A stretch of 32,483 nt of DNA from Symploca sp. SIO2E6 (GCA_010672425.1 JAAHGR010000032.1:1-32483), one strand, 5' to 3'. Numbered from the stretch's first letter, positions 4,114 to 32,483 are shown. Made by a program: numbers and translations. Notes: generated by a model from the letters alone, not told the origin.

Positions 4114-4160
4114 AAAACGACCCTATGGCAAAATCCAGAAAGCAAACGAACAGTAGATGT

Positions 4161-4314
4161 GGTTTGTTGTTGGTTGTTGGTTGTTGGTTGTTGGTTATTT
4201 GTTGTTTGTTGTTGGTTGTTTGTTGTTGGTTGTTTGTTGTTGGTTGTTGGTTATTTGTTGTTTGTTGTTTGTTGTTGGTTGTTTGTTGTTGGTTGTTGGT
4301 TGTTGGTTGTTTGT
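4161..4314. repeat. TTGTTGG/TTGTTTG heptamer array
   Basis: About 22 tandem heptamers mix TTGTTGG, TTGTTTG and TTATTTG. The unit contains no stop codon in any frame of either strand, so the overlapping ORFs in the track (4112-4457) are artefacts of the repeat. Confidence 0.95.
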
Positions 4315-4325
4315 CATTGGTCATA

Positions 4326-4455
4326 ATATCAAATCCGGCTAAACACTTATCCTATCCTTCTACCTTACAACCTTCTTTCTTCCCTTGGAGCCTTCTGCCT
4401 TCTGCCTTGGAGCCTTATTGCCACCGAAGTGTAACTATTCCACCGGATTTGATAT
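4326..4455. mobile_element. 130-bp MITE-like element, copy A
   Basis: It is bounded by a perfect 13-bp terminal inverted repeat (ATATCAAATCCGG / CCGGATTTGATAT), with TA at each outer edge. The interior contains TTCTTTCTTCCC and GGAGCCTTATTGCCACC. It carries no coding capacity. A second 130-bp copy lies at 21439-21568 in opposite orientation with clear similarity across the interior. It is sandwiched between two unrelated heptamer arrays. Confidence 0.75.
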
Positions 4456-4560
4456 AACTCATAACTCATAACTCATAACTCATAACTCATAACTCATAAC
4501 TCATAACTCATAACTCATAACTCATAACTCATAACTCATAACTCATAACTCATAACTCAT
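4455..4560. repeat. ACTCATA heptamer array
   Basis: About 15 near-perfect tandem copies of the 7-mer AACTCAT begin exactly at the edge of MITE-like copy A. The remaining 74 bp to the Uma2 gene show no clear motif apart from probable promoter sequence. Confidence 0.95.
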
Positions 4561-9760: not shown

Positions 9761-10951
9761 ATGCAAGACGCTGTTTACAACAAAAGTTTTACCCTACAGT
9801 CTGGGGCACGACAATGGTTAGCGATCGCGATCATTGCCCTGTTAGGTGTAGGAGGAGCAGCGGTTTATTGGAAATTGCGATCGCAAGCTGCCGTAACTCC
9901 CGAATCTCCTGCAATTGCTTTACCTGAGATCAAAACCGTAACTGCTTTAGGACATTTAGAGCCAGACGGCGAGGTGATTTACCTCACTGCTCCTACTTCT
10001 GGCCAAGAGAGCCGGATCGAGCAACTGTTAGTACAGGAAGGGGATGCAGTGCAAGCTGGGCAGGTAATTGCCATCTTGGATAGCCGCGATCGGCTGCAAG
10101 CCAGCTATGACCAAGCTCAGCGAGATATCGAAGTTGCCCGTGCCCGACTCGCCCAAGTAGAAGCTGGGGCTAAAGCAGGGGAGATCGCTACCCAACAAGC
10201 CGAAATTGCTCGTTTAGAGGCTGATCAACAAGCTCGAATTGCCTCTCAACAAGCTATCATTGAGCGATTGCAGGCGGAAGTTCAAAATGCCGAAGTCGAA
10301 TATCAGCGCTACGACTATCTCTATCAGGAAGGAGCAATCTCAGCTTCTAATCGCGATGCTAGACAGCTTACCCTGCAAACCACCCAGCGGAATTTACAAC
10401 AAGCCCAGGCAGACCTAACCCGATTGCAATCTACCCGCTCACCAGAACTTGCCAAAGCCCAAGCTACCTTATCGAGCATCACCGATGTGCGAACTGTGGA
10501 TATACAAGTTTTGCAAGCGGAACTCAATCGAGCGATCGCGGCAGCAGATCAAGCAAAAGCGACCCTAGAACAAGCTTTTGTCCGCTCACCGCAAGACGGC
10601 ATCATTATGGATGTCCATACCCAAGCTGGGGAAGTGATTGCGACAGAAGGCATTGTCGAAATTGGTCAAACTGACCAGATGGTAGCGATTGCTGAAGTAT
10701 ACGAAAGTGACGTGCAAAAAGTCAAGCCTGGTCAGGCGGCACGGATCTTTAGCAGTGCCCTACCCGATGAACTGCGCGGCACTGTCGCCTGGGTAGATCT
10801 CAAAGTGCAGAGACAAACAGTAATAAACACCGACCCTAGCGAAAATATTGACGCCAAAGTTGTCGAAGTGCGAGTTCAACTAGACCCACAATCAAGTCAA
10901 GCCGCTGCTAAATTTACTAACTTACAGGTTGAGGTGGAGATTGGGAATTGA
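9761..10951 (+). CDS. devB: DevB-type membrane fusion protein of an ABC exporter (HlyD family)
   Basis: This is the periplasmic adaptor that links an inner-membrane ABC exporter (DevCA) to a TolC-like outer-membrane channel. One membrane segment lies at about residues 19-38 (WLAIAIIALLGVGGAAVYW). It is followed by split lipoyl/barrel-sandwich halves (IEQLLVQEGDAVQAGQVIAILDS and later RSPQDGIIMDVHTQAGEVI) around a long Ala/Gln/Glu-rich coiled coil with ARLAQVEAGAKAGEIA, as in DevB proteins. The ATG at 9761 is preferred over the GTG at 9758 because TAGGGGG lies five bases ahead of it. It heads devB-devC-devA. In Anabaena-type cyanobacteria DevBCA exports heterocyst glycolipids, and paralogues in other strains serve other envelope or stress roles, so the cargo here is open. 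Confidence 0.9.
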   Translation: MQDAVYNKSFTLQSGARQWLAIAIIALLGVGGAAVYWKLRSQAAVTPESPAIALPEIKTVTALGHLEPDGEVIYLTAPTSGQESRIEQLLVQEGDAVQAGQVIAILDSRDRLQASYDQAQRDIEVARARLAQVEAGAKAGEIATQQAEIARLEADQQARIASQQAIIERLQAEVQNAEVEYQRYDYLYQEGAISASNRDARQLTLQTTQRNLQQAQADLTRLQSTRSPELAKAQATLSSITDVRTVDIQVLQAELNRAIAAADQAKATLEQAFVRSPQDGIIMDVHTQAGEVIATEGIVEIGQTDQMVAIAEVYESDVQKVKPGQAARIFSSALPDELRGTVAWVDLKVQRQTVINTDPSENIDAKVVEVRVQLDPQSSQAAAKFTNLQVEVEIGN

Positions 10952-15407: not shown

Positions 15408-15676
15408 TTATTTGTTGTTTGTTGTTTGTTATTTGTTGTTTGTTGTTTGTTGTTTGTTATTTGTTGTTTGTTGTTTGTTGTTTGTTGTTTGTTGTTTGTT
15501 GTTTGTTGTTTGTTGTTTGTTATTTGTTGTTTGTTGTTTGTTGTTTGTTGTTTGTTATTTGTTGTTTGTTGTTTGCCAATTCGCAATTATACATTCTCAA
15601 TTCTCAATTCTCAATTCTCCATTCTCCATTCCCCATTCCCCATTCCCCATTCCCCATTCCCCATTCCCCATTCCTT
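15408..15676. repeat. TTTGTTG array followed by TCTCAAT / CCCCATT arrays
   Basis: About 23 copies of TTTGTTG with occasional TTATTTG (15408-15575) are followed by CTCAATT units and CCCCATT units up to the rsmD start. All six frames of the first array are open, producing the spurious LLFVVCC ORFs in the track. Confidence 0.95.
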
Positions 15677-16984: not shown

Positions 16985-18253
16985 ATGACTAACTTTGAAC
17001 ACAAGCGCGTCGTTGTTACAGGCCTCGGCGCGATCACACCGCTAGGAAATACCCTGGCTGACTATTGGGAAGGGTTGTTGGATGGACGCAATGGAATTGC
17101 GGAAATTAGTTTATTTGACCCTTCCCAGCACGATTGCCGTATTGCTGGTGAGGTAAAAGGCTACGACCCCCAGGATGATATGACACGTAAGGAGGCAAGG
17201 CGTATGGATCGCTTTGCCCAATTTGGGGTTTCTGCCAGCAAGCAGGCTTTAGTGGATGGACAGTTTGTGATCAATGAACTGAACGCCCAACAGGTAGGTG
17301 TAATCATTGGTACGGGCATCGGTGGTCTTAAGGTCTTAGAAGACCAGCAAGCAATTTACTTGAAAAATGGACCTTCTAAGTGTAGTCCGTTTATGATTCC
17401 GATGATGATTGCCAATATGGCAGCGGGTCATACGGCAATTCATACCGGTGCAAAGGGACCTAATAGTTGTACCGTAACTGCCTGTGCTGCTGGTTCCCAT
17501 GCTATAGGGGACGCCTTTCGCTTAGTACAGCGAGGCTACGCCCAAGCAATGATTTGTGGTGGAACTGAAGCTGCGGTTACTCCTTTGTCTGTTGCTGGTT
17601 TTGCAGCGGCACGAGCTTTGTCTACCCGTAATGACAGCCCTGAAACGGCTTGTCGTCCCTTTGATAAAGACCGCGATGGCTTTGTTATGGGGGAAGGCTC
17701 TGGTATTTTGCTAATCGAAGAACTCGGACATGCTCTGAGTCGTGGAGCCCGGATTTATGCTGAAATTGTGGGCTACGGCATGACCTGTGATGCCTATCAC
17801 ATGACTTCACCAGTACCAGGAGGAGAAGGTGCAGCTAGAGCTATCCAACTAGCAATGAAGGATGCCGGTTTGTCTAGTGAACAGGTGAGCTATATTAATG
17901 CCCACGGTACTAGTACTCCAGCCAACGATTCTACGGAAACAGCTGCCATCAAAAAAGTTTTGGGTGAACATGCTTACCAAGTGGCAGTTAGTTCAACTAA
18001 ATCAATGACAGGTCATTTGTTGGGTGGCTCAGGAGGTATTGAAGCTGTGGCTACAGTAATGGCTGTAGCCAATGACCAGATCCCTCCGACGATTAACTTG
18101 CAAAATCCAGACCCTAATTGTGACTTAAATTACGTACCAAACAAGAGTCGTAAGCACACGGTAGAAGTGGCTCTATCCAATTCTTTTGGATTCGGTGGCC
18201 ATAATGTTACTCTAGCGTTCAGGAAATATAGGGAAGAAGGGACTGCCAAATAA
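16985..18253 (+). CDS. fabF: Beta-ketoacyl-ACP synthase II
   Basis: This enzyme condenses malonyl-ACP with acyl-ACP in fatty-acid elongation in the cytoplasm. The thiolase-fold catalytic triad is visible: Cys167 in TACAAGSH, His307 in [11 protein letters not shown] and His344 in [10 protein letters not shown]. The glycine-rich C-terminal [10 protein letters not shown] is intact. The 422 aa length is normal once the start is set at ATG 16985 (AGGC ahead); the ORF-track start at 16943 adds a non-conserved leader. Its ACP partner is encoded just upstream. Confidence 0.97.
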
Positions 18254-18264
18254 AAAAAACTCAT

Positions 18265-18476
18265 TGTTGGGGGAGTGTGGGGAGTGTGGGGAGACAAGGG
18301 AGACAAGGGAGACAAGGGAGACAAGGGAGACAAGGGAGGAATTCCCAATTCCCGATTCCCAATTCCCAATTCCCAATTCCCAATTCCCAATTCCCGATTC
18401 CCAATTCCCAATTCCCAATTCCCAATTCCCGATTCCCAATTCCCAATTCCCAATTCCCAATTCCCAATTCCCAATT
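18265..18476. repeat. GGGAGACAA nonamer and CCCAATT heptamer arrays
   Basis: Six GGGAGACAA-type nonamers (about 18290-18340) run into about 19 CCCAATT/CCCGATT heptamers. The CCCAATT unit has no stop in any frame of either strand, which explains the overlapping ORFs. About 130 bp of unique sequence, with the transketolase promoter, follows. Confidence 0.95.
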
Positions 18477-18608
18477 CCAATCTTGCCCATCGATCCCTGT
18501 AATGGGATGATGGGTATATAACTTTTGGGCAACCGAGAGCCATCGAGTTCTAATTCAAACAAAATCTAACTTTAAACCTTAGTTCACCAGAGTCATTCAA
18601 GAGAAATT

Positions 18609-26408: not shown

Positions 26409-27527
26409 TTACCCAGAACTATTTCTGAGGAAAACTAACCCACTATACAACTGAAATGCCGGGTCCCAAGGTGTTTGTTCCCAGCGAGACAGGTTAATGT
26501 AAGACGGTAGATGTCCCAACATATCTGGGTAGTCGATTGCAGTATTCGCAAAAGTAGTAAAATCAGACCAGATTGGGAGTTCAGGTAATTTACGATTGAG
26601 GAAATCCAGTAAACTGTTCCATTTGCTTCTCGTAGTTCCTTGCCCAAGAGCAGGTTCTGGTGACCCCTTGAGTTGGGAGTTGGACTGTAGTGAACTAAGA
26701 GCAATTCCCTGCTGAAATTGATAATGGCGATCGCATAAGCGAATAATACTGTTTCTAGAGGGCAAATGTAAGTCACAAAACTGTGCATAGTCCAGGGTTT
26801 TGGTTTTCCGCTGTAATTTGCGGCGCACATCCATCTCCACAACTTCTTCAAACAGCGGCAGTAGTCCTTCTACTCTTTGAGAGATTTCGGACCAATGGAA
26901 AGTCAGGGAACCCAACTGTTCTTGGGGATTACGGCAAAAAATAGTAGCTCCTTCGTAACTGATTTCGGAAAAATAATTGAGGCTAAAAACATTAATTTTC
27001 CGAATATCTGCTAGAGCCACACTAAAACAAGGAATCTCGGCTTGGCGTAAGGACGAAGCATAAAATTCCAGTTCCCCCACCAGTCCTGTACGGTAAAGAC
27101 GCCAACCCCTACTAGGCAGTTGCAAGCGAGCACTATAAGGATCTAGCTGCATAATCCTAGCTAATTTTTGAGCAGCTGTCTGTTTTACTTCTGTAGGAAC
27201 AGCTTCTAGGATAAATACCCCTAGTTCCTGGCTGTCGGGAGTAGCAGTTGCCTGAGCAAGAGCCTGCTGACGTTGTTGTTGTTCTAGTGATAGCAAGCGC
27301 TCTAATCCCTGACGCGCCTGGGACATAATCTTAGGATTAGTGGTACTTTTGAGTAATTGTCGGTAGTTATCTTCTGCTGCTTCCAGCTTACTAGTTTCCT
27401 CATATAAGCGTCCCAGATAGAGCCTAACCCAAGGGTTATCTGGCTCCTGTTTCAGCAGCTGTTTGAGTAATCGAGCAGCTGTTTTATACTCCTTACGCTT
27501 CAAAGCATCGGCAACTTCGTTAATCAT
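26409..27527 (-). CDS. TPR-repeat protein, cyanobacterial, function unknown
   Basis: A 372 aa soluble protein. Residues about 1-85 form two tetratricopeptide repeats (ALKRKEYKTAARLLKQLLKQ, PWVRLYLGRLYEETSKLEAAEDNY), suggesting protein-protein contact. The remaining region has an ILEAV...KQTAAQKLARIM segment and a C-terminal part rich in aromatic residues without a family I can name. The ATG at 27527 sits at the very edge of a 400-bp STRR block with no ribosome-binding site. It lies downstream of rsmE on the same strand. Confidence 0.8.
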   Translation of the reverse strand: MINEVADALKRKEYKTAARLLKQLLKQEPDNPWVRLYLGRLYEETSKLEAAEDNYRQLLKSTTNPKIMSQARQGLERLLSLEQQQRQQALAQATATPDSQELGVFILEAVPTEVKQTAAQKLARIMQLDPYSARLQLPSRGWRLYRTGLVGELEFYASSLRQAEIPCFSVALADIRKINVFSLNYFSEISYEGATIFCRNPQEQLGSLTFHWSEISQRVEGLLPLFEEVVEMDVRRKLQRKTKTLDYAQFCDLHLPSRNSIIRLCDRHYQFQQGIALSSLQSNSQLKGSPEPALGQGTTRSKWNSLLDFLNRKLPELPIWSDFTTFANTAIDYPDMLGHLPSYINLSRWEQTPWDPAFQLYSGLVFLRNSSG

Positions 27528-27936
27528 TGTTGTTTGTTATTGGTTGTTTGTTGTTGGTTATTGGTTGTTTGTTGTTGGTTATTTGTTGTTTGTTGTTGGT
27601 TATTTGTTGTTTGTTGTTGGTTATTTGTTGTTTGTTGTTGGTTATTTGTTGTTTGTTGTTGGTTATTTGTTGTTTGTTGTTTGTTGTTTGTCGTTTGTTG
27701 TTTGTTGTTTGTCGTTTGTCGTTTGTTGTTTGTCGTTTGTCGTTTGTCGTTTGTTGTTTGTTGTTGGTTATTAATTATTACTCATTACTCATTACTCATT
27801 ACTCATTACTCATTACTTATTACTTATTACTTATTACTCATTACTCATTACTCATTACTCATTACTCCTTACTCCTTACTCCTTACTCATTACTCATTAC
27901 TCATTACTCCTTACTCCTTACTCATTACTCATTACT
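27528..27936. repeat. Large STRR block with 21-bp higher-order repeat
   Basis: TTGTTGG/TTGTTTG/TTATTTG heptamers (27528-27770) include five exact 21-bp units GGTTATTTGTTGTTTGTTGTT starting at 27577, 27598, 27619, 27640 and 27661. TTTGTCG variants follow, then about 22 ACTCATT/ACTTATT/ACTCCTT units, the last ones inside the 3' end of rsmE. Confidence 0.95.
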
Positions 27937-28680: not shown

Positions 28681-28733
28681 GTTAGGTGTTAGGTTTCAGG
28701 GTGGTAGTGGCGTGACACAGCTAAATGGAATAA

Positions 28734-28811
28734 GTAGGTTGGGTGAAGCGGTAGCGTAACCCAACATTGGAGCAGGTTTCGTTGGGTTTCACTCCGTTTC
28801 ACCCAACCTAC
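28734..28811. repeat. GTAGGTTGGGTGAA inverted repeat
   Basis: Perfect 14-bp arms (GTAGGTTGGGTGAA / TTCACCCAACCTAC) enclose a second pair (CCCAAC / GTTGGG). This is the GTAGGTTGGGT-type interspersed repeat often seen between cyanobacterial genes. It lies between the kinase-SUMF1 gene and rsmE. Confidence 0.8.
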
Positions 28812-28873
28812 ATTTTTTGGTGTACTACGCCAGTAGGTGTTAGGTAGGATCTTATCTATTGATAATCACGATA

Positions 28874-30856
28874 TTACGATACCTTGACGCAAACAACTCG
28901 AAAACCGACGTTGAGGTTCCGGAATCCGGGTTCATAGTAGACGCGATAGGCACTTCGACAGTTCTTGGGTTGGTCGTGCCAAGACCCCCCCCGCAGCACA
29001 CGAGAACGGTTATCACTCTCATTTTCGGCTACCCAGGCACTCCCATCCATTGGTGCTCCATTATAGTTGTCATGCCAACGATCCTCACACCATTCCCAGA
29101 CATTCCCATGCATATTCGATAAGCCAAAAGCGTTGGGTACTCGAAAACTGCCCACGGTGATCGTTTTGTGTCGATACTCTCCGGTGGGGGCTGAGCCGTA
29201 GGTATAATTACCGTTGTAGTTAACTACATTAGTGGTAATTGTTTTGCCCAAGTGGAAAGGGGTTGTTGTGCCAGCACGACAGGCATATTCCCATTGAGCT
29301 TCGCTGGGTAGCCGGTAGGTATGTCCGGTTTCTCGGGAGAGTCGAGCACAGAACTCCTGAACATCATACCACGATACCCGCTCTACTGGTAAATTATCAC
29401 CTTTGAAGTTAGAGGGATCAGCATTTAAATTGCGATTAACTTTATCTAAGGTGGCTACGGCTTTCCACTGTGCCTGAGTGATGGCAAATTTACCCACATA
29501 GAAAGGCTTGATGCTTACTGGGTGTAGAGGACTTTCCTGACGACCTCTTCCCTCCTCAGTATCTGAGGAACCCATGATCAAGGAACCACCAGGAATTGCT
29601 ACCATTTCCAGTCGGATACCCGGGCCTAAGTCTTCGGTAAAGGATTTGGCTTGGCGACGTTTGCGACTATTTTCTTTTCCTTGGGAGTCTAGGGTTACTA
29701 GCTCAAAATCAAAGTCTTGAAGTTTCTTTCCGGAAGGAGGAGGAGGTAAATCTTTCCAGTTTATAGTTTGGGAGTAGGTGAGGGCATGATGGACAATTAC
29801 TCCTCCCACTAACCCAGCAACACCCAAACCAGCCACCCCAATAAATTGTCTTCTGTTCCATCTACTTCCAAGACTTGTAAATTGTCCTATTTCTGTTTTT
29901 AACAATGTACCAAGACTTGTAGACTGTCCTATTTCTGTTTTGGAGGATGTACGATCATTAAGTATTTGCTTAATTTCTGCCAATCGTTGTAAAATTTCCT
30001 GAGTATCCGCCGGACGTTGATTCGCTGAATGGCTCATCAACTTATCGATAAAATCGGCCAATTGAGGCAAAAGATTAGGAGTACAATAGCGCCAGTTTAA
30101 CTTATTATTTTGGGCATCGTAAATTGTGGGATCAGTCGGTTGCTTACCTGTCAGCAAAAAGACAAAAGTACGTCCTAAAGCAAAGAAATCTGACTGCGGT
30201 ACTGCATGATTGTTAAGTTGTTCTGGGGATGTGTAACCAAACGAAGCGATCGCTGTTACTTGTCCAGCTGGTTGTTTTTCCAAGTAGGTAGGAGTAATTG
30301 CTCTGGCAGAACCAAAATCAATTAACACTAACTGTCCATCTGATCTGAGGATAATATTCGACGGCTTAATATCCCGGTGGAAAAACTGTTGCTGATGCAC
30401 AACCTGTAGAATTTCTGCCAACTGCTGGAGCCATTTTAGAGCTAAGTCCTGATCAATCGGCTCATTCTGCCGCTGTTGCTGATATTCCTCCAAATCCAAA
30501 CCTTCAATCTGTTCCATCACCAGGCAATGTAAGGGTTGCTTGCTCTTTCTGGCAAAGTAGGTAAAGTATTCGTATCCCTGAGGAATACCCGGATGATGTA
30601 GCTGCTGAAGAACTCGCGCCTCTTGTTGAAATAATTCAATAGCTCTAGGTTCATCTTGCTTAATCAGAACTTTGAGTACTTTAGGTTTACTATCTTGACT
30701 CACTTCATAAGTTTTACCAAACCCCCCTTTCCGACTGAGTAACCGATTTACCCGATATCGTCCTATCAGCAGTAATTCTGAACCACAGGCTTGACAGAAG
30801 AGGACATGATCGGGATTTTCCGGATAGGGACAGTTGGGATTAATACAGAGACTCAT
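28874..30856 (-). CDS. Ser/Thr protein kinase fused to SUMF1/FGE-type C-type-lectin-fold domain
   Basis: The N-terminal Cys cluster (Cys4, 9, 21, 24) resembles a zinc ribbon. The Hanks-type kinase domain spans about 33-300, with glycine loop SRKGGFGKTY, Lys62, HRDIKPSN (160-167), DFG (180-182) and SPEQ. A single membrane helix near 335-360 (FIGVAGLGVAGLVGGVIVHH) separates it from a SUMF1/FGE-like domain (IPGGSLIMGS, RLPSEAQWEYACRAG, GNVWEWCEDRW, VLRGGSW) placed outside the membrane. The paired Cys of true formylglycine-generating enzymes is not kept after RGGSW (only NCRSAYR), so a binding role is more likely than sulfatase activation. The C-terminal 34 codons look like a DGR variable region. 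It is a tandem paralogue of the next gene. Confidence 0.9.
   Translation of the reverse strand: MSLCINPNCPYPENPDHVLFCQACGSELLLIGRYRVNRLLSRKGGFGKTYEVSQDSKPKVLKVLIKQDEPRAIELFQQEARVLQQLHHPGIPQGYEYFTYFARKSKQPLHCLVMEQIEGLDLEEYQQQRQNEPIDQDLALKWLQQLAEILQVVHQQQFFHRDIKPSNIILRSDGQLVLIDFGSARAITPTYLEKQPAGQVTAIASFGYTSPEQLNNHAVPQSDFFALGRTFVFLLTGKQPTDPTIYDAQNNKLNWRYCTPNLLPQLADFIDKLMSHSANQRPADTQEILQRLAEIKQILNDRTSSKTEIGQSTSLGTLLKTEIGQFTSLGSRWNRRQFIGVAGLGVAGLVGGVIVHHALTYSQTINWKDLPPPPSGKKLQDFDFELVTLDSQGKENSRKRRQAKSFTEDLGPGIRLEMVAIPGGSLIMGSSDTEEGRGRQESPLHPVSIKPFYVGKFAITQAQWKAVATLDKVNRNLNADPSNFKGDNLPVERVSWYDVQEFCARLSRETGHTYRLPSEAQWEYACRAGTTTPFHLGKTITTNVVNYNGNYTYGSAPTGEYRHKTITVGSFRVPNAFGLSNMHGNVWEWCEDRWHDNYNGAPMDGSAWVAENESDNRSRVLRGGSWHDQPKNCRSAYRVYYEPGFRNLNVGFRVVCVKVS
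28892..28993 (-). other. Candidate DGR-type variable region (VR1)
   Basis: 34 codons from RGGSW to GFRVV. Against the paralogue (30994-31095, equal length, no indels) all of positions 6-8, 10-11, 16, 18-21 and 26-28 differ, while the framework RGGSW, CRS, Pro and GFRVV is shared. No template repeat or reverse transcriptase is in the window. Confidence 0.4.
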
Positions 30857-30950
30857 TGGAATTTAGAATTGATAATGGGGAATTGGGAATTGGGAATTGT
30901 TTACCCATCTCCACGGTTTGTCGGCTAAGGGATTTTAAAGGCATAAGTAC

Positions 30951-30980
30951 CTACCACCTAACACCTAACACCTAACACCT
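30951..30980. repeat. TTAGGTG array at the 3' end of the second kinase-SUMF1 gene
   Basis: About four ACACCTA units (TTAGGTG on the minus strand) overlap the end of the coding sequence and supply its last residues (VLGVRC) and TAG stop. Confidence 0.9.
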
Positions 30981-32478
30981 CATTCCTAAGACAGACAACC
31001 CGAAAACCAATACCTTTATCCTTGAAAAATGGTGCGTCGCCGTGGCGGAAGGTACTACGACAGTCCCAGGGATTGTAAAACCAGGAACCCCCGCGTACTA
31101 TGCGACAAGGATTATTCTGATCATCTTTTAACCAAGCACTACCATCTTTGGGAGCTCCATAGTAATTGTTATGCCAATGATCCTCACACCATTCCCAGAC
31201 ATTACCATGCATGTCATATAAGCCAAAAGCATTGGCTACTTGAAAACTCCCTACTGGGGTAGTTTTTCTTCGATCCTCTCCCCTGAGACCAGAACCGTAG
31301 GTATAGTCATTATGGTAGTTAGCCAAATCAGTGTTAATCGTCTCCCCAAAGTGGAATGGGGTTGTTGTGCCAGCGCGACAGGCATATTCCCATTGAGCCT
31401 CACTAGGTAATCGGTAGGTACGTCCGGTTTTTCTGGAGAGTCTGGCACAGAATTCTTGAGCATCAAACCACGATACCCGCTCTACTGGTAAATTATCACC
31501 TTTGAAGTTAGAGGGATCAGCATTTAAAGAGCGACTAACTTTGCGTAAGGCGGCTACGGCTTTCCACTGTGCCTGAGTAATCGTAAATTTCCCCAAATAG
31601 AAGGGTTTGACAGTTACTGAGTGCTGGGGAATTTCCTCAGCAACTCGTCTCTTCTCCCTATCTGGGGAACCCATCATAAAAGTACCACCAGGGATTGCCA
31701 CCATCTCCAGCAGGATTCCCTTACCCAAGTCTTCGGTAAAGAAATTTGCTTGGCAGAGATTGCGACTATTTTCCTTACCCTGGGAGTCTACGGTGACTAC
31801 TTCAAAGTTAAAGGATTGGAGTTTGATATCCCCGGGTTGAGGCGAATTAGAAAACCAGTCAGCGATTCTCACCAATGGGGTTTTTCGTGAAGAAGACAAC
31901 GACTTATCAGCCTTTCCCCCAAAGAAACCTGCTTTCTTCACTGATGCTTGAGCAGAATTTCCCTCACTTCCACTCTTCCTGAGCAGTGGTGGCGGATTGA
32001 CTATCCGGTCAATCTCTGCCAACCGTTGTAAAATTACCTGAGTATTCGCCGGACGTTGACTGGCAACACGCATCATCAACTCATCGATAAAGTCTGCCAA
32101 TTCCGGTACAATATCAAGACAATGAGAGCGCCAGTTTAACTGATCATTGAGAGGGTCATAAATTGCTGCATCGTTTGGTTGCTTACCCGTCAGCAGAAAA
32201 ACAAAGGTGCGTCCTAAAGCAAAGAAATCTGACTGGGGTACTGCTCGATAGTTAAACTGCTCTGGGGGTGTGTAGCCAAAGGAAGCAACCCCGGTAACTT
32301 GTCCTTTTACTTGTTTAAGCTGATAAGTAGCAGTCATTTCCCTAACTGAACCAAAATCAATCAAAACCAACTGTCCATCTGTCCTGAGGATAATATTCGA
32401 TGGCTTAATATCGCGGTGGGAAGAGTTCTGCTGTGGCACAACGTGCAGAATTTCTGATATCGGAAGATCACACCTCAT
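30958..32478 (-). CDS. Ser/Thr kinase-SUMF1 paralogue lacking a recognisable N-lobe (edge of window)
   Basis: Similarity to the neighbouring kinase starts only at SEILHVVPQQ, just before the catalytic loop HRDIKPSN (21-28) and DFG (41-43). The zinc-ribbon, glycine loop and ATP-binding lysine are missing. Upstream residues (MRCDLPI) are unlike kinases and lead into a CATAACTC heptamer at the window edge. The SUMF1 domain is complete (IPGGTFMMGS, RLPSEAQWEYACRAG, GNVWEWCEDHW, IVRGGSW). There is no membrane helix; the linker contains a translated interspersed element (GGKADKSLSSSR). The frame is open at the edge, so the gene may continue, but what is visible suggests a kinase-dead or truncated protein. 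The C-terminus and stop come from TTAGGTG repeats. Confidence 0.75.
   Translation of the reverse strand: MRCDLPISEILHVVPQQNSSHRDIKPSNIILRTDGQLVLIDFGSVREMTATYQLKQVKGQVTGVASFGYTPPEQFNYRAVPQSDFFALGRTFVFLLTGKQPNDAAIYDPLNDQLNWRSHCLDIVPELADFIDELMMRVASQRPANTQVILQRLAEIDRIVNPPPLLRKSGSEGNSAQASVKKAGFFGGKADKSLSSSRKTPLVRIADWFSNSPQPGDIKLQSFNFEVVTVDSQGKENSRNLCQANFFTEDLGKGILLEMVAIPGGTFMMGSPDREKRRVAEEIPQHSVTVKPFYLGKFTITQAQWKAVAALRKVSRSLNADPSNFKGDNLPVERVSWFDAQEFCARLSRKTGRTYRLPSEAQWEYACRAGTTTPFHFGETINTDLANYHNDYTYGSGLRGEDRRKTTPVGSFQVANAFGLYDMHGNVWEWCEDHWHNNYYGAPKDGSAWLKDDQNNPCRIVRGGSWFYNPWDCRSTFRHGDAPFFKDKGIGFRVVCLRNEVLGVRC
30994..31095 (-). other. Candidate DGR-type variable region (VR2)
   Basis: 34 codons from RGGSW to GFRVV, the same length as VR1. 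The variable clusters read FYN, WD, F, HGDA and DKG here versus HDQ, KN, Y, VYYE and NLN in VR1. Confidence 0.4.
31875..31938. repeat. Palindromic interspersed element inside the kinase-SUMF1 coding sequence
   Basis: TTTTTCGTGAAGAAGACAAC and CAGCCTTTCCCCCAAAG align with the element at 25739-25804 in the GT39 gene with one small indel. It encodes about residues 181-202, in the linker between kinase and SUMF1 domains. Confidence 0.7.
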
Positions 32479-32483
32479 AACTC

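What the first reader, a model, noticed from the sequence alone, without database searches (positions are those of the whole stretch)
28874..32478. Tandem kinase-SUMF1 paralogues with C-termini that look like DGR variable regions
Seen: two adjacent genes share a kinase-SUMF1 design. Over the last 34 codons of the fold (28892-28993 and 30994-31095, both 102 bp, no indels) the framework residues RGGSW, P, CRS, R, P, F and GFRVV are the same, while every residue in the clusters 6-8, 10-11, 16, 18-21 and 26-28 differs. Most codons in those clusters end in C or T, as expected from AAC/AAT template codons changed at adenines. Known: SUMF1/FGE C-type-lectin-fold domains ending RGGSW...GFRV are classic targets of diversity-generating retroelements, and cyanobacterial DGRs have been reported to target regulatory proteins. 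Inference: these are DGR targets, or descendants of targets, giving a kinase a changeable sensor domain. The reverse transcriptase and template repeat would lie outside the window or elsewhere in the genome.
Basis: partly seen in the sequence, partly recalled or inferred. Interest (0 to 1): 0.85.

Follow-up and report, generated by a model that had tools for sequence, protein, structure and literature searches.

The report
Retired hypermutation targets: frozen kinase sensors
Two neighbouring cyanobacterial kinase genes carry a sensor tip of the kind that a mutation machine (a diversity-generating retroelement) rewrites in related bacteria, but here the docking site for that machine is gone and the only machine remnant found in the genome is broken, so the tips look frozen: a known family, with an informative relic.

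Summary
Both genes encode a Ser/Thr kinase plus an FGE/C-type-lectin domain, and the last 34 codons are that domain's least conserved part (50% identical residues against 72%). Gene B is cut by the contig end.

Live DGR targets: not supported. A and B differ by ordinary drift: 41% of shared codons differ silently, 47% of changed codons keep their third base, 18 of 40 mismatches fall at template-A columns. Real DGR target pairs give 1%, 96% and 46 of 54. Both genes lack the IMH-plus-pyrimidine-tract acceptor that follows all 12 DGR variable regions checked. No cyanobacterial DGR reverse transcriptase or template repeat is in the assembly.

Descendants of targets: supported by inference. A and B fall in one clade with contig C589's kinase-FGE gene, which keeps its acceptor tract and is followed by a DGR avd gene broken after codon 67 by a dispersed repeat, where the contig ends. 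Eight of 18 FGE paralogues keep acceptor tracts; two groups show eroded adenine-directed variation.

Kinase-FGE DGR targets and RT-less relics are published for cyanobacteria (PMC7517822): a new member of a known kind.

The parts
28874..30856 (-). Gene A: 660-aa protein, 4-Cys prefix + Hanks-type Ser/Thr kinase + C-terminal FGE/C-type-lectin domain
   Evidence: Pfam Pkinase 2e-32 (aa 43-290), FGE-sulfatase 4.9e-53 (aa 417-655); NF045510 4Cys_prefix_kin above cut-off; PADLOC PD-T4-6 models 2e-125 over aa 1-322
28892..28993 (-). A: 34-codon segment homologous to cyanobacterial DGR variable regions (RGGSW...GFRVV)
   Evidence: lines up with verified DGR VR/TR pairs
30958..32481 (-). Gene B: 5'-truncated (contig end) kinase + FGE domain, at least 507 aa
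   Evidence: window is the whole contig C684
30994..31095 (-). B: 34-codon segment homologous to DGR variable regions
28826..28891 (-). Sequence after A's GFRVV where DGR targets carry IMH + polypyrimidine tract; absent here (pyrimidine fraction 0.50)
30928..30993 (-). Sequence after B's GFRVV: GTGTTAGGT repeats instead of IMH + polypyrimidine tract (pyrimidine fraction 0.50)
28760..28830 (-). Copy of the dispersed TGTAGGTTGGGT repeat behind gene A; the same repeat interrupts avd on contig C589 (extent of this copy approximate)
   Evidence: window 28801-28823 matches the C589 tail; sequence

Best explanation
A and B are Hanks-type Ser/Thr kinases with a C-terminal FGE-type C-type-lectin module that probably works as the ligand sensor. 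They are remote paralogues of the target gene of a cyanobacterial-clade diversity-generating retroelement that this Symploca lineage once had. Shown: the architecture, the clade with the cassette's target, the lack of the acceptor behind A and B, the broken avd at C589, and the absence of RT and TR from the assembly. Inferred: the variable codons of their ancestor were once rewritten from an adenine-rich template; A and B lost the acceptor to repeat sequence; the cassette was disabled by insertion of a dispersed repeat into avd; the sensor tips now change only by ordinary mutation and act as fixed, divergent ligand specificities.
For: FGE domain resembles PvdO (1.5e-40) and the DGR variable protein TvpA (2y3c, 2e-20). 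Tree of the FGE domain without the variable segment: A, B, the C589 target and eight further own or congener genes form a clade of 11 (97/89), although its inner order is open. C589: kinase-FGE gene, pyrimidine tract 0.81, then avd 63% identical to Fischerella Avd over 67 codons, then a dispersed repeat and contig end. Eight of 18 own FGE paralogues keep a pyrimidine tract of at least 0.75 (background 0.8%). Paralogue groups 1 and 2 keep the third base in 66% and 78% of changed codons against 46% and 42% in the rest of the domain. The inferred template finds only FGE genes (best 91, 89, 85% identity) and short chance matches, no separate TR. A-B lacks every signature of recent rewriting.
Against: That A and B themselves were ever rewritten is inferred from kinship; no template-like pattern survives in them. 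Loops of FGE domains vary anyway, so the raised divergence alone (p=0.016) is weak evidence. The assembly is a 97%-complete draft in 1437 contigs, and contig C589 ends just after the interrupted avd, so RT and TR could sit in an unassembled piece. Groups 1 and 2 were formed by eye after seeing the sequences, and the inferred template was drawn from the same paralogues it was searched against.
Confidence: 0.72

Rival explanations
1. A and B never were DGR targets. They belong to the large FGE/C-type-lectin family, whose ligand loops diverge by ordinary mutation and selection; DGRs recruited other members of the same family.
For: A-B differences look like drift: silent differences 0.41, third-base retention 0.47, 18/40 mismatches at A columns, similar to A or B against most other own paralogues. 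No acceptor behind either gene. The segment is variable in FGE proteins generally.
Against: They sit in one supported clade with the C589 cassette target and with acceptor-bearing paralogues (L018, L026, L112, L114), so loss of the acceptor after descent needs fewer steps.
Confidence: 0.21
2. A and B are live targets, diversified in trans by a DGR whose RT and template are missing from this draft assembly or lie on an unbinned plasmid.
For: Remote and trans-diversified targets are reported (PMC10907252, PMC7517822). Contig C589 ends at avd, so the rest of that cassette is unseen; sampled contigs go down to 1.8 kb, so a shorter RT piece could be missing.
Against: No acceptor sequence behind A or B; 7 of 17 shared codons differ silently although retrohoming would copy the template's third bases into both (1% in true pairs). 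No RT in 21 other genomes of the family searched, both congeners included. Avd at C589 is broken.
Confidence: 0.07

Closest known systems
Cyanobacterial DGR variable proteins and their remote paralogues, Vallota-Eastman et al. 2020 (PMC7517822)
   Same: Serine/threonine kinase fused to a C-terminal C-type-lectin module with a hypervariable C-terminal segment; dispersed paralogues in filamentous cyanobacteria; a relic without nearby RT (Nostoc all3226) already described
   Different: Here no RT or TR is found and A and B show neither the adenine signature nor the acceptor; an avd remnant interrupted by a dispersed repeat in Symploca was not found in the papers searched
DGR targets of Thiohalocapsa PB-PSB1 (Dore et al. 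2024, PMC10907252)
   Same: FGE/C-type-lectin targets, remote targets, MITE-like elements degrading DGR components
   Different: There most incomplete loci are still diversified in nature; here no working machinery is found
Formylglycine-generating enzyme SUMF1 / PvdO family (Pfam PF03781)
   Same: Same fold and framework residues
   Different: The first of the two copper-binding cysteines of true FGE (as in L149, GGSFLCHSSYC) is replaced by D in A and Y in B, so formylglycine activity is unlikely (role of the cysteines from general knowledge)
PD-T4-6 defence kinases (PADLOC)
   Same: Kinase half of A scores 2e-125 over aa 1-322
   Different: The match covers the kinase part only; a defence role of A or B is untested

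Membership tests
Active diversity-generating retroelement target (for A and B) | DGR-type reverse transcriptase in the genome | tested here: not met
   Own RTs are group II introns and fragments plus two UG4-type RTs; best match to Fischerella DGR RT 31%, against 65-73% in DGR-bearing cyanobacteria. Draft assembly, so absence is not final
Active diversity-generating retroelement target (for A and B) | Template repeat matching the variable region | tested here: not met
   Searches with both segments and with two inferred templates find FGE genes and weak short or partial matches, no near-exact separate copy; the same kind of repeat was found in the DGR-positive controls
Active diversity-generating retroelement target (for A and B) | Differences confined to template adenines | tested here: not met
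   A-B 18/40 at A columns against 46/54 in DGR target pairs and 152/156 in VR-TR pairs; third-base and silent-change tests agree
Active diversity-generating retroelement target (for A and B) | Acceptor (IMH and following element) directly 3' of the variable region | tested here: not met
   Pyrimidine fraction 0.50 behind both; 0.71-0.90 behind 12 DGR VRs, 0.33-0.44 behind 9 TRs
Active diversity-generating retroelement target (for A and B) | Accessory gene avd | tested here: inconclusive
   One avd remnant on contig C589, interrupted after codon 67 by a dispersed repeat and contig end
Active diversity-generating retroelement target (for A and B) | Population-level variation at the variable codons | not testable with these tools
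   No reads held
Cyanobacterial DGR-VP family incl. remote paralogues (PMC7517822) | C-terminal FGE/C-type-lectin module with the VR framework at the 3' end | tested here: met
Cyanobacterial DGR-VP family incl. remote paralogues (PMC7517822) | VR at least 50% identical in DNA to a DGR target VR of the genome (that paper's cut for 'remote VP') | tested here: met
   A 33/99 and B 36/99 mismatches to the C589 VR; the cut is lax: A also reaches it against the distant paralogue L025 (48/99 mismatches)
Cyanobacterial DGR-VP family incl. remote paralogues (PMC7517822) | Common descent with a cassette target | tested here: met
   Clade 97/89 with the C589 target and relatives; inner branching unresolved
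Formylglycine-generating enzyme | Both copper-binding cysteines | tested here: not met
   Only the second cysteine (NC/DC before RS) is present in A and B

The most novel reading that the evidence does not exclude
Cyanobacterial DGR acceptors end in a long polypyrimidine tract in place of the phage-type hairpin, and this tract is a sequence fossil by which former targets can be recognised after RT and template are lost. By that mark a DGR in Symploca stocked the genome with a set of kinase-FGE sensors and then died, leaving frozen specificities such as A and B.
Probability: 0.4. Interest if true: 0.5.

Novelty: new member of a known kind. Interest (0 to 1): 0.38.

Why it matters
It shows how to tell a live DGR target from a retired one with a single genome: silent-site and third-base tests plus the acceptor tract. 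It also gives a case where a retroelement seems to have been used to make a repertoire of kinase sensors that was then kept without the machine. The published idea that favourable variants become fixed once DGR parts are removed (PMC7517822) could be tested in Symploca with long reads.

Tried and rejected
Two ~340-360-aa RTs (C950, C1025) looked like DGR candidates by length; they are UG4-type (PADLOC 3e-117 and 2e-119) with GLSLGCPLSP/GISLGCPLSP instead of the DGR motif LPIGNLTSQ. RT hits at 30-33% in four family genomes have GIPQGAVISP and are not DGR RTs. Short FGE pieces on C1339, C747 and C795 were checked as possible template repeats: two are truncated gene remnants and one is cut by its contig end. 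A match to the second inferred template on C1028 (73% over part of it) was fetched; no FGE reading frame of 120 aa or more lies there, and it was not followed further. No structure was predicted; the fold is clear from sequence.

Full report
What was checked. The window is the whole of contig C684 in a draft genome of 8.96 Mb in 1437 contigs, 97% complete. Gene A (28874-30856, minus strand) is complete: 4-Cys prefix, kinase, FGE domain. Gene B (30958-32481, minus strand) runs off the contig and lacks the N-terminal part of the kinase. The segment is the least conserved part of the FGE domain: DNA identity 0.58-0.64 against 0.70-0.90 in the other windows of the domain.

Positive controls. On the Fischerella NIES-4106 plasmid named in PMC7517822, the target gene, avd, RT and template repeat were located. 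Eleven further DGR-RT loci came from other cyanobacteria of the order and were fetched with more flank; most show a recognisable variable region, template or both. Over 11 VR-TR comparisons, 152 of 156 mismatches are at template adenines. Target pairs at one locus differ silently in 1% of shared codons and keep the third base in 96% of changed codons.

A and B fail these tests. Silent differences 0.41, third base kept 0.47 (8 of 17), 18 of 40 mismatches at template-A columns; Fisher p = 1.6e-5 (third base) and 4.8e-5 (A columns) against the controls.

Acceptor. Every DGR variable region examined is followed by an IMH-like stretch (mostly AGGACTCTT, where the template has AGTACTCTT or AGCACTCTT) and then a pyrimidine-rich tract: fraction 0.71-0.90 in 12 VRs, 0.33-0.44 behind 9 templates. 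Behind A and B it is 0.50. Eight of 18 FGE paralogues in the same genome reach 0.75, against 0.8% of background windows. In phage BPP-1 the element behind the VR is a hairpin required for efficient homing (PMC3240598). A pyrimidine tract was not mentioned in the DGR papers searched, but the library is partial.

Machinery. No reverse transcriptase of the cyanobacterial DGR clade is in this genome or in 21 other genomes of its family, while DGR-bearing cyanobacteria give 65-73% identity in the same search. Template searches found FGE genes and weak short or partial matches only. But contig C589 carries a kinase-FGE gene with variable segment and acceptor tract, followed by avd, 63% identical to Fischerella Avd over its first 67 codons, then a dispersed repeat with copies on several contigs including one behind gene A, then the contig end. 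Both congeners lack avd in the same search, while four DGR-bearing control genomes have it. MITE-like decay of DGR parts is known (PMC10907252).

Descent. In a tree of the FGE domain without the variable segment, A, B, the C589 target and eight related genes form a clade (97/89); the order inside is open. Group 1 and group 2 paralogues still show eroded DGR signatures: L021 (the C589 target) differs from an inferred template mostly at adenines, and the template search matched it at 91%. That template was drawn from these same genes, so this is suggestive, not independent.

Stability. Where likely orthologues between species could be recognised, the segment is conserved: 0.97 and 0.91 in two pairs of another genus of the family (rest of the domain 0.92 and 0.90), and 0.97 against 0.79 for the rest of the domain in L015/L173. 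These are other genes, not A or B, whose orthologues could not be identified. Other pairs of related genes in the genus have segments of 0.44-0.65 with the rest at 0.78-0.84, as expected of former targets or of fast loops.

Mechanism. The kinase half is of the Hanks type; [quoted passage not shown] That binding at the variable face controls the kinase is the proposal of PMC7517822 and remains untested here.

Judgement. Best reading, 0.72: retired descendants of DGR targets, working as fixed kinase sensors. Never targeted: 0.21. Still targeted in trans: 0.07. The architecture and RT-less relics are published, so the novelty lies in the Symploca cassette relic and the acceptor tract as a marker.

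Noticed in passing
G000 contig C589: L213 3176-3636 (record 10176-10635): Relic DGR cassette: kinase-FGE target, pyrimidine tract, avd broken after codon 67 by a dispersed TGTAGGTTGGGT repeat at the contig end.
   Followed up: yes
L039, L047, L048, L051, L052, L054, L059, L060, downstream of the variable regions: A long polypyrimidine tract (CCCTTT...CTCTTTTGCCCTTT) follows cyanobacterial DGR variable regions but not templates; similar tracts stand behind some FGE genes of other phyla (L133, L134, L138).
   Followed up: partly
L009 1282-2301 and L010 535-1611: Two UG4-type (DRT-class) reverse transcriptases in the same genome.
   Followed up: partly
L191 3047-3470: Kinase-FGE pseudogene with most of its middle deleted: about 75 N-terminal residues, then the FGE C-terminus in another frame.
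   Followed up: partly
window 29360-29490 and 31460-31590 (approximate): A stretch of the FGE domain where A and B are 88-90% identical in DNA with only two silent differences per 34 codons, against up to 10-11 elsewhere: possible gene conversion.
   Followed up: no
window 28700-32483 against L188 and L189: The rsmE neighbour is conserved in both Symploca congeners but the A-B pair is absent beside it, so the pair arrived or stayed only here.
   Followed up: partly
L133: Uncultured Acidobacteria contig that looks like a DGR locus: an N-rich template-like repeat (RGGSWNNNSNNCRSANRNRNHPGNRNNNIGLRI) and two matching FGE variable regions.
   Followed up: no
window 4125-4457, 15419-15620, 18212-18500, 27460-27900: Many runs of short tandem repeats (TTTGTTGTTGG-like, GGGAATTGGGAATT-like) between genes, read through by spurious ORFs.
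   Followed up: no
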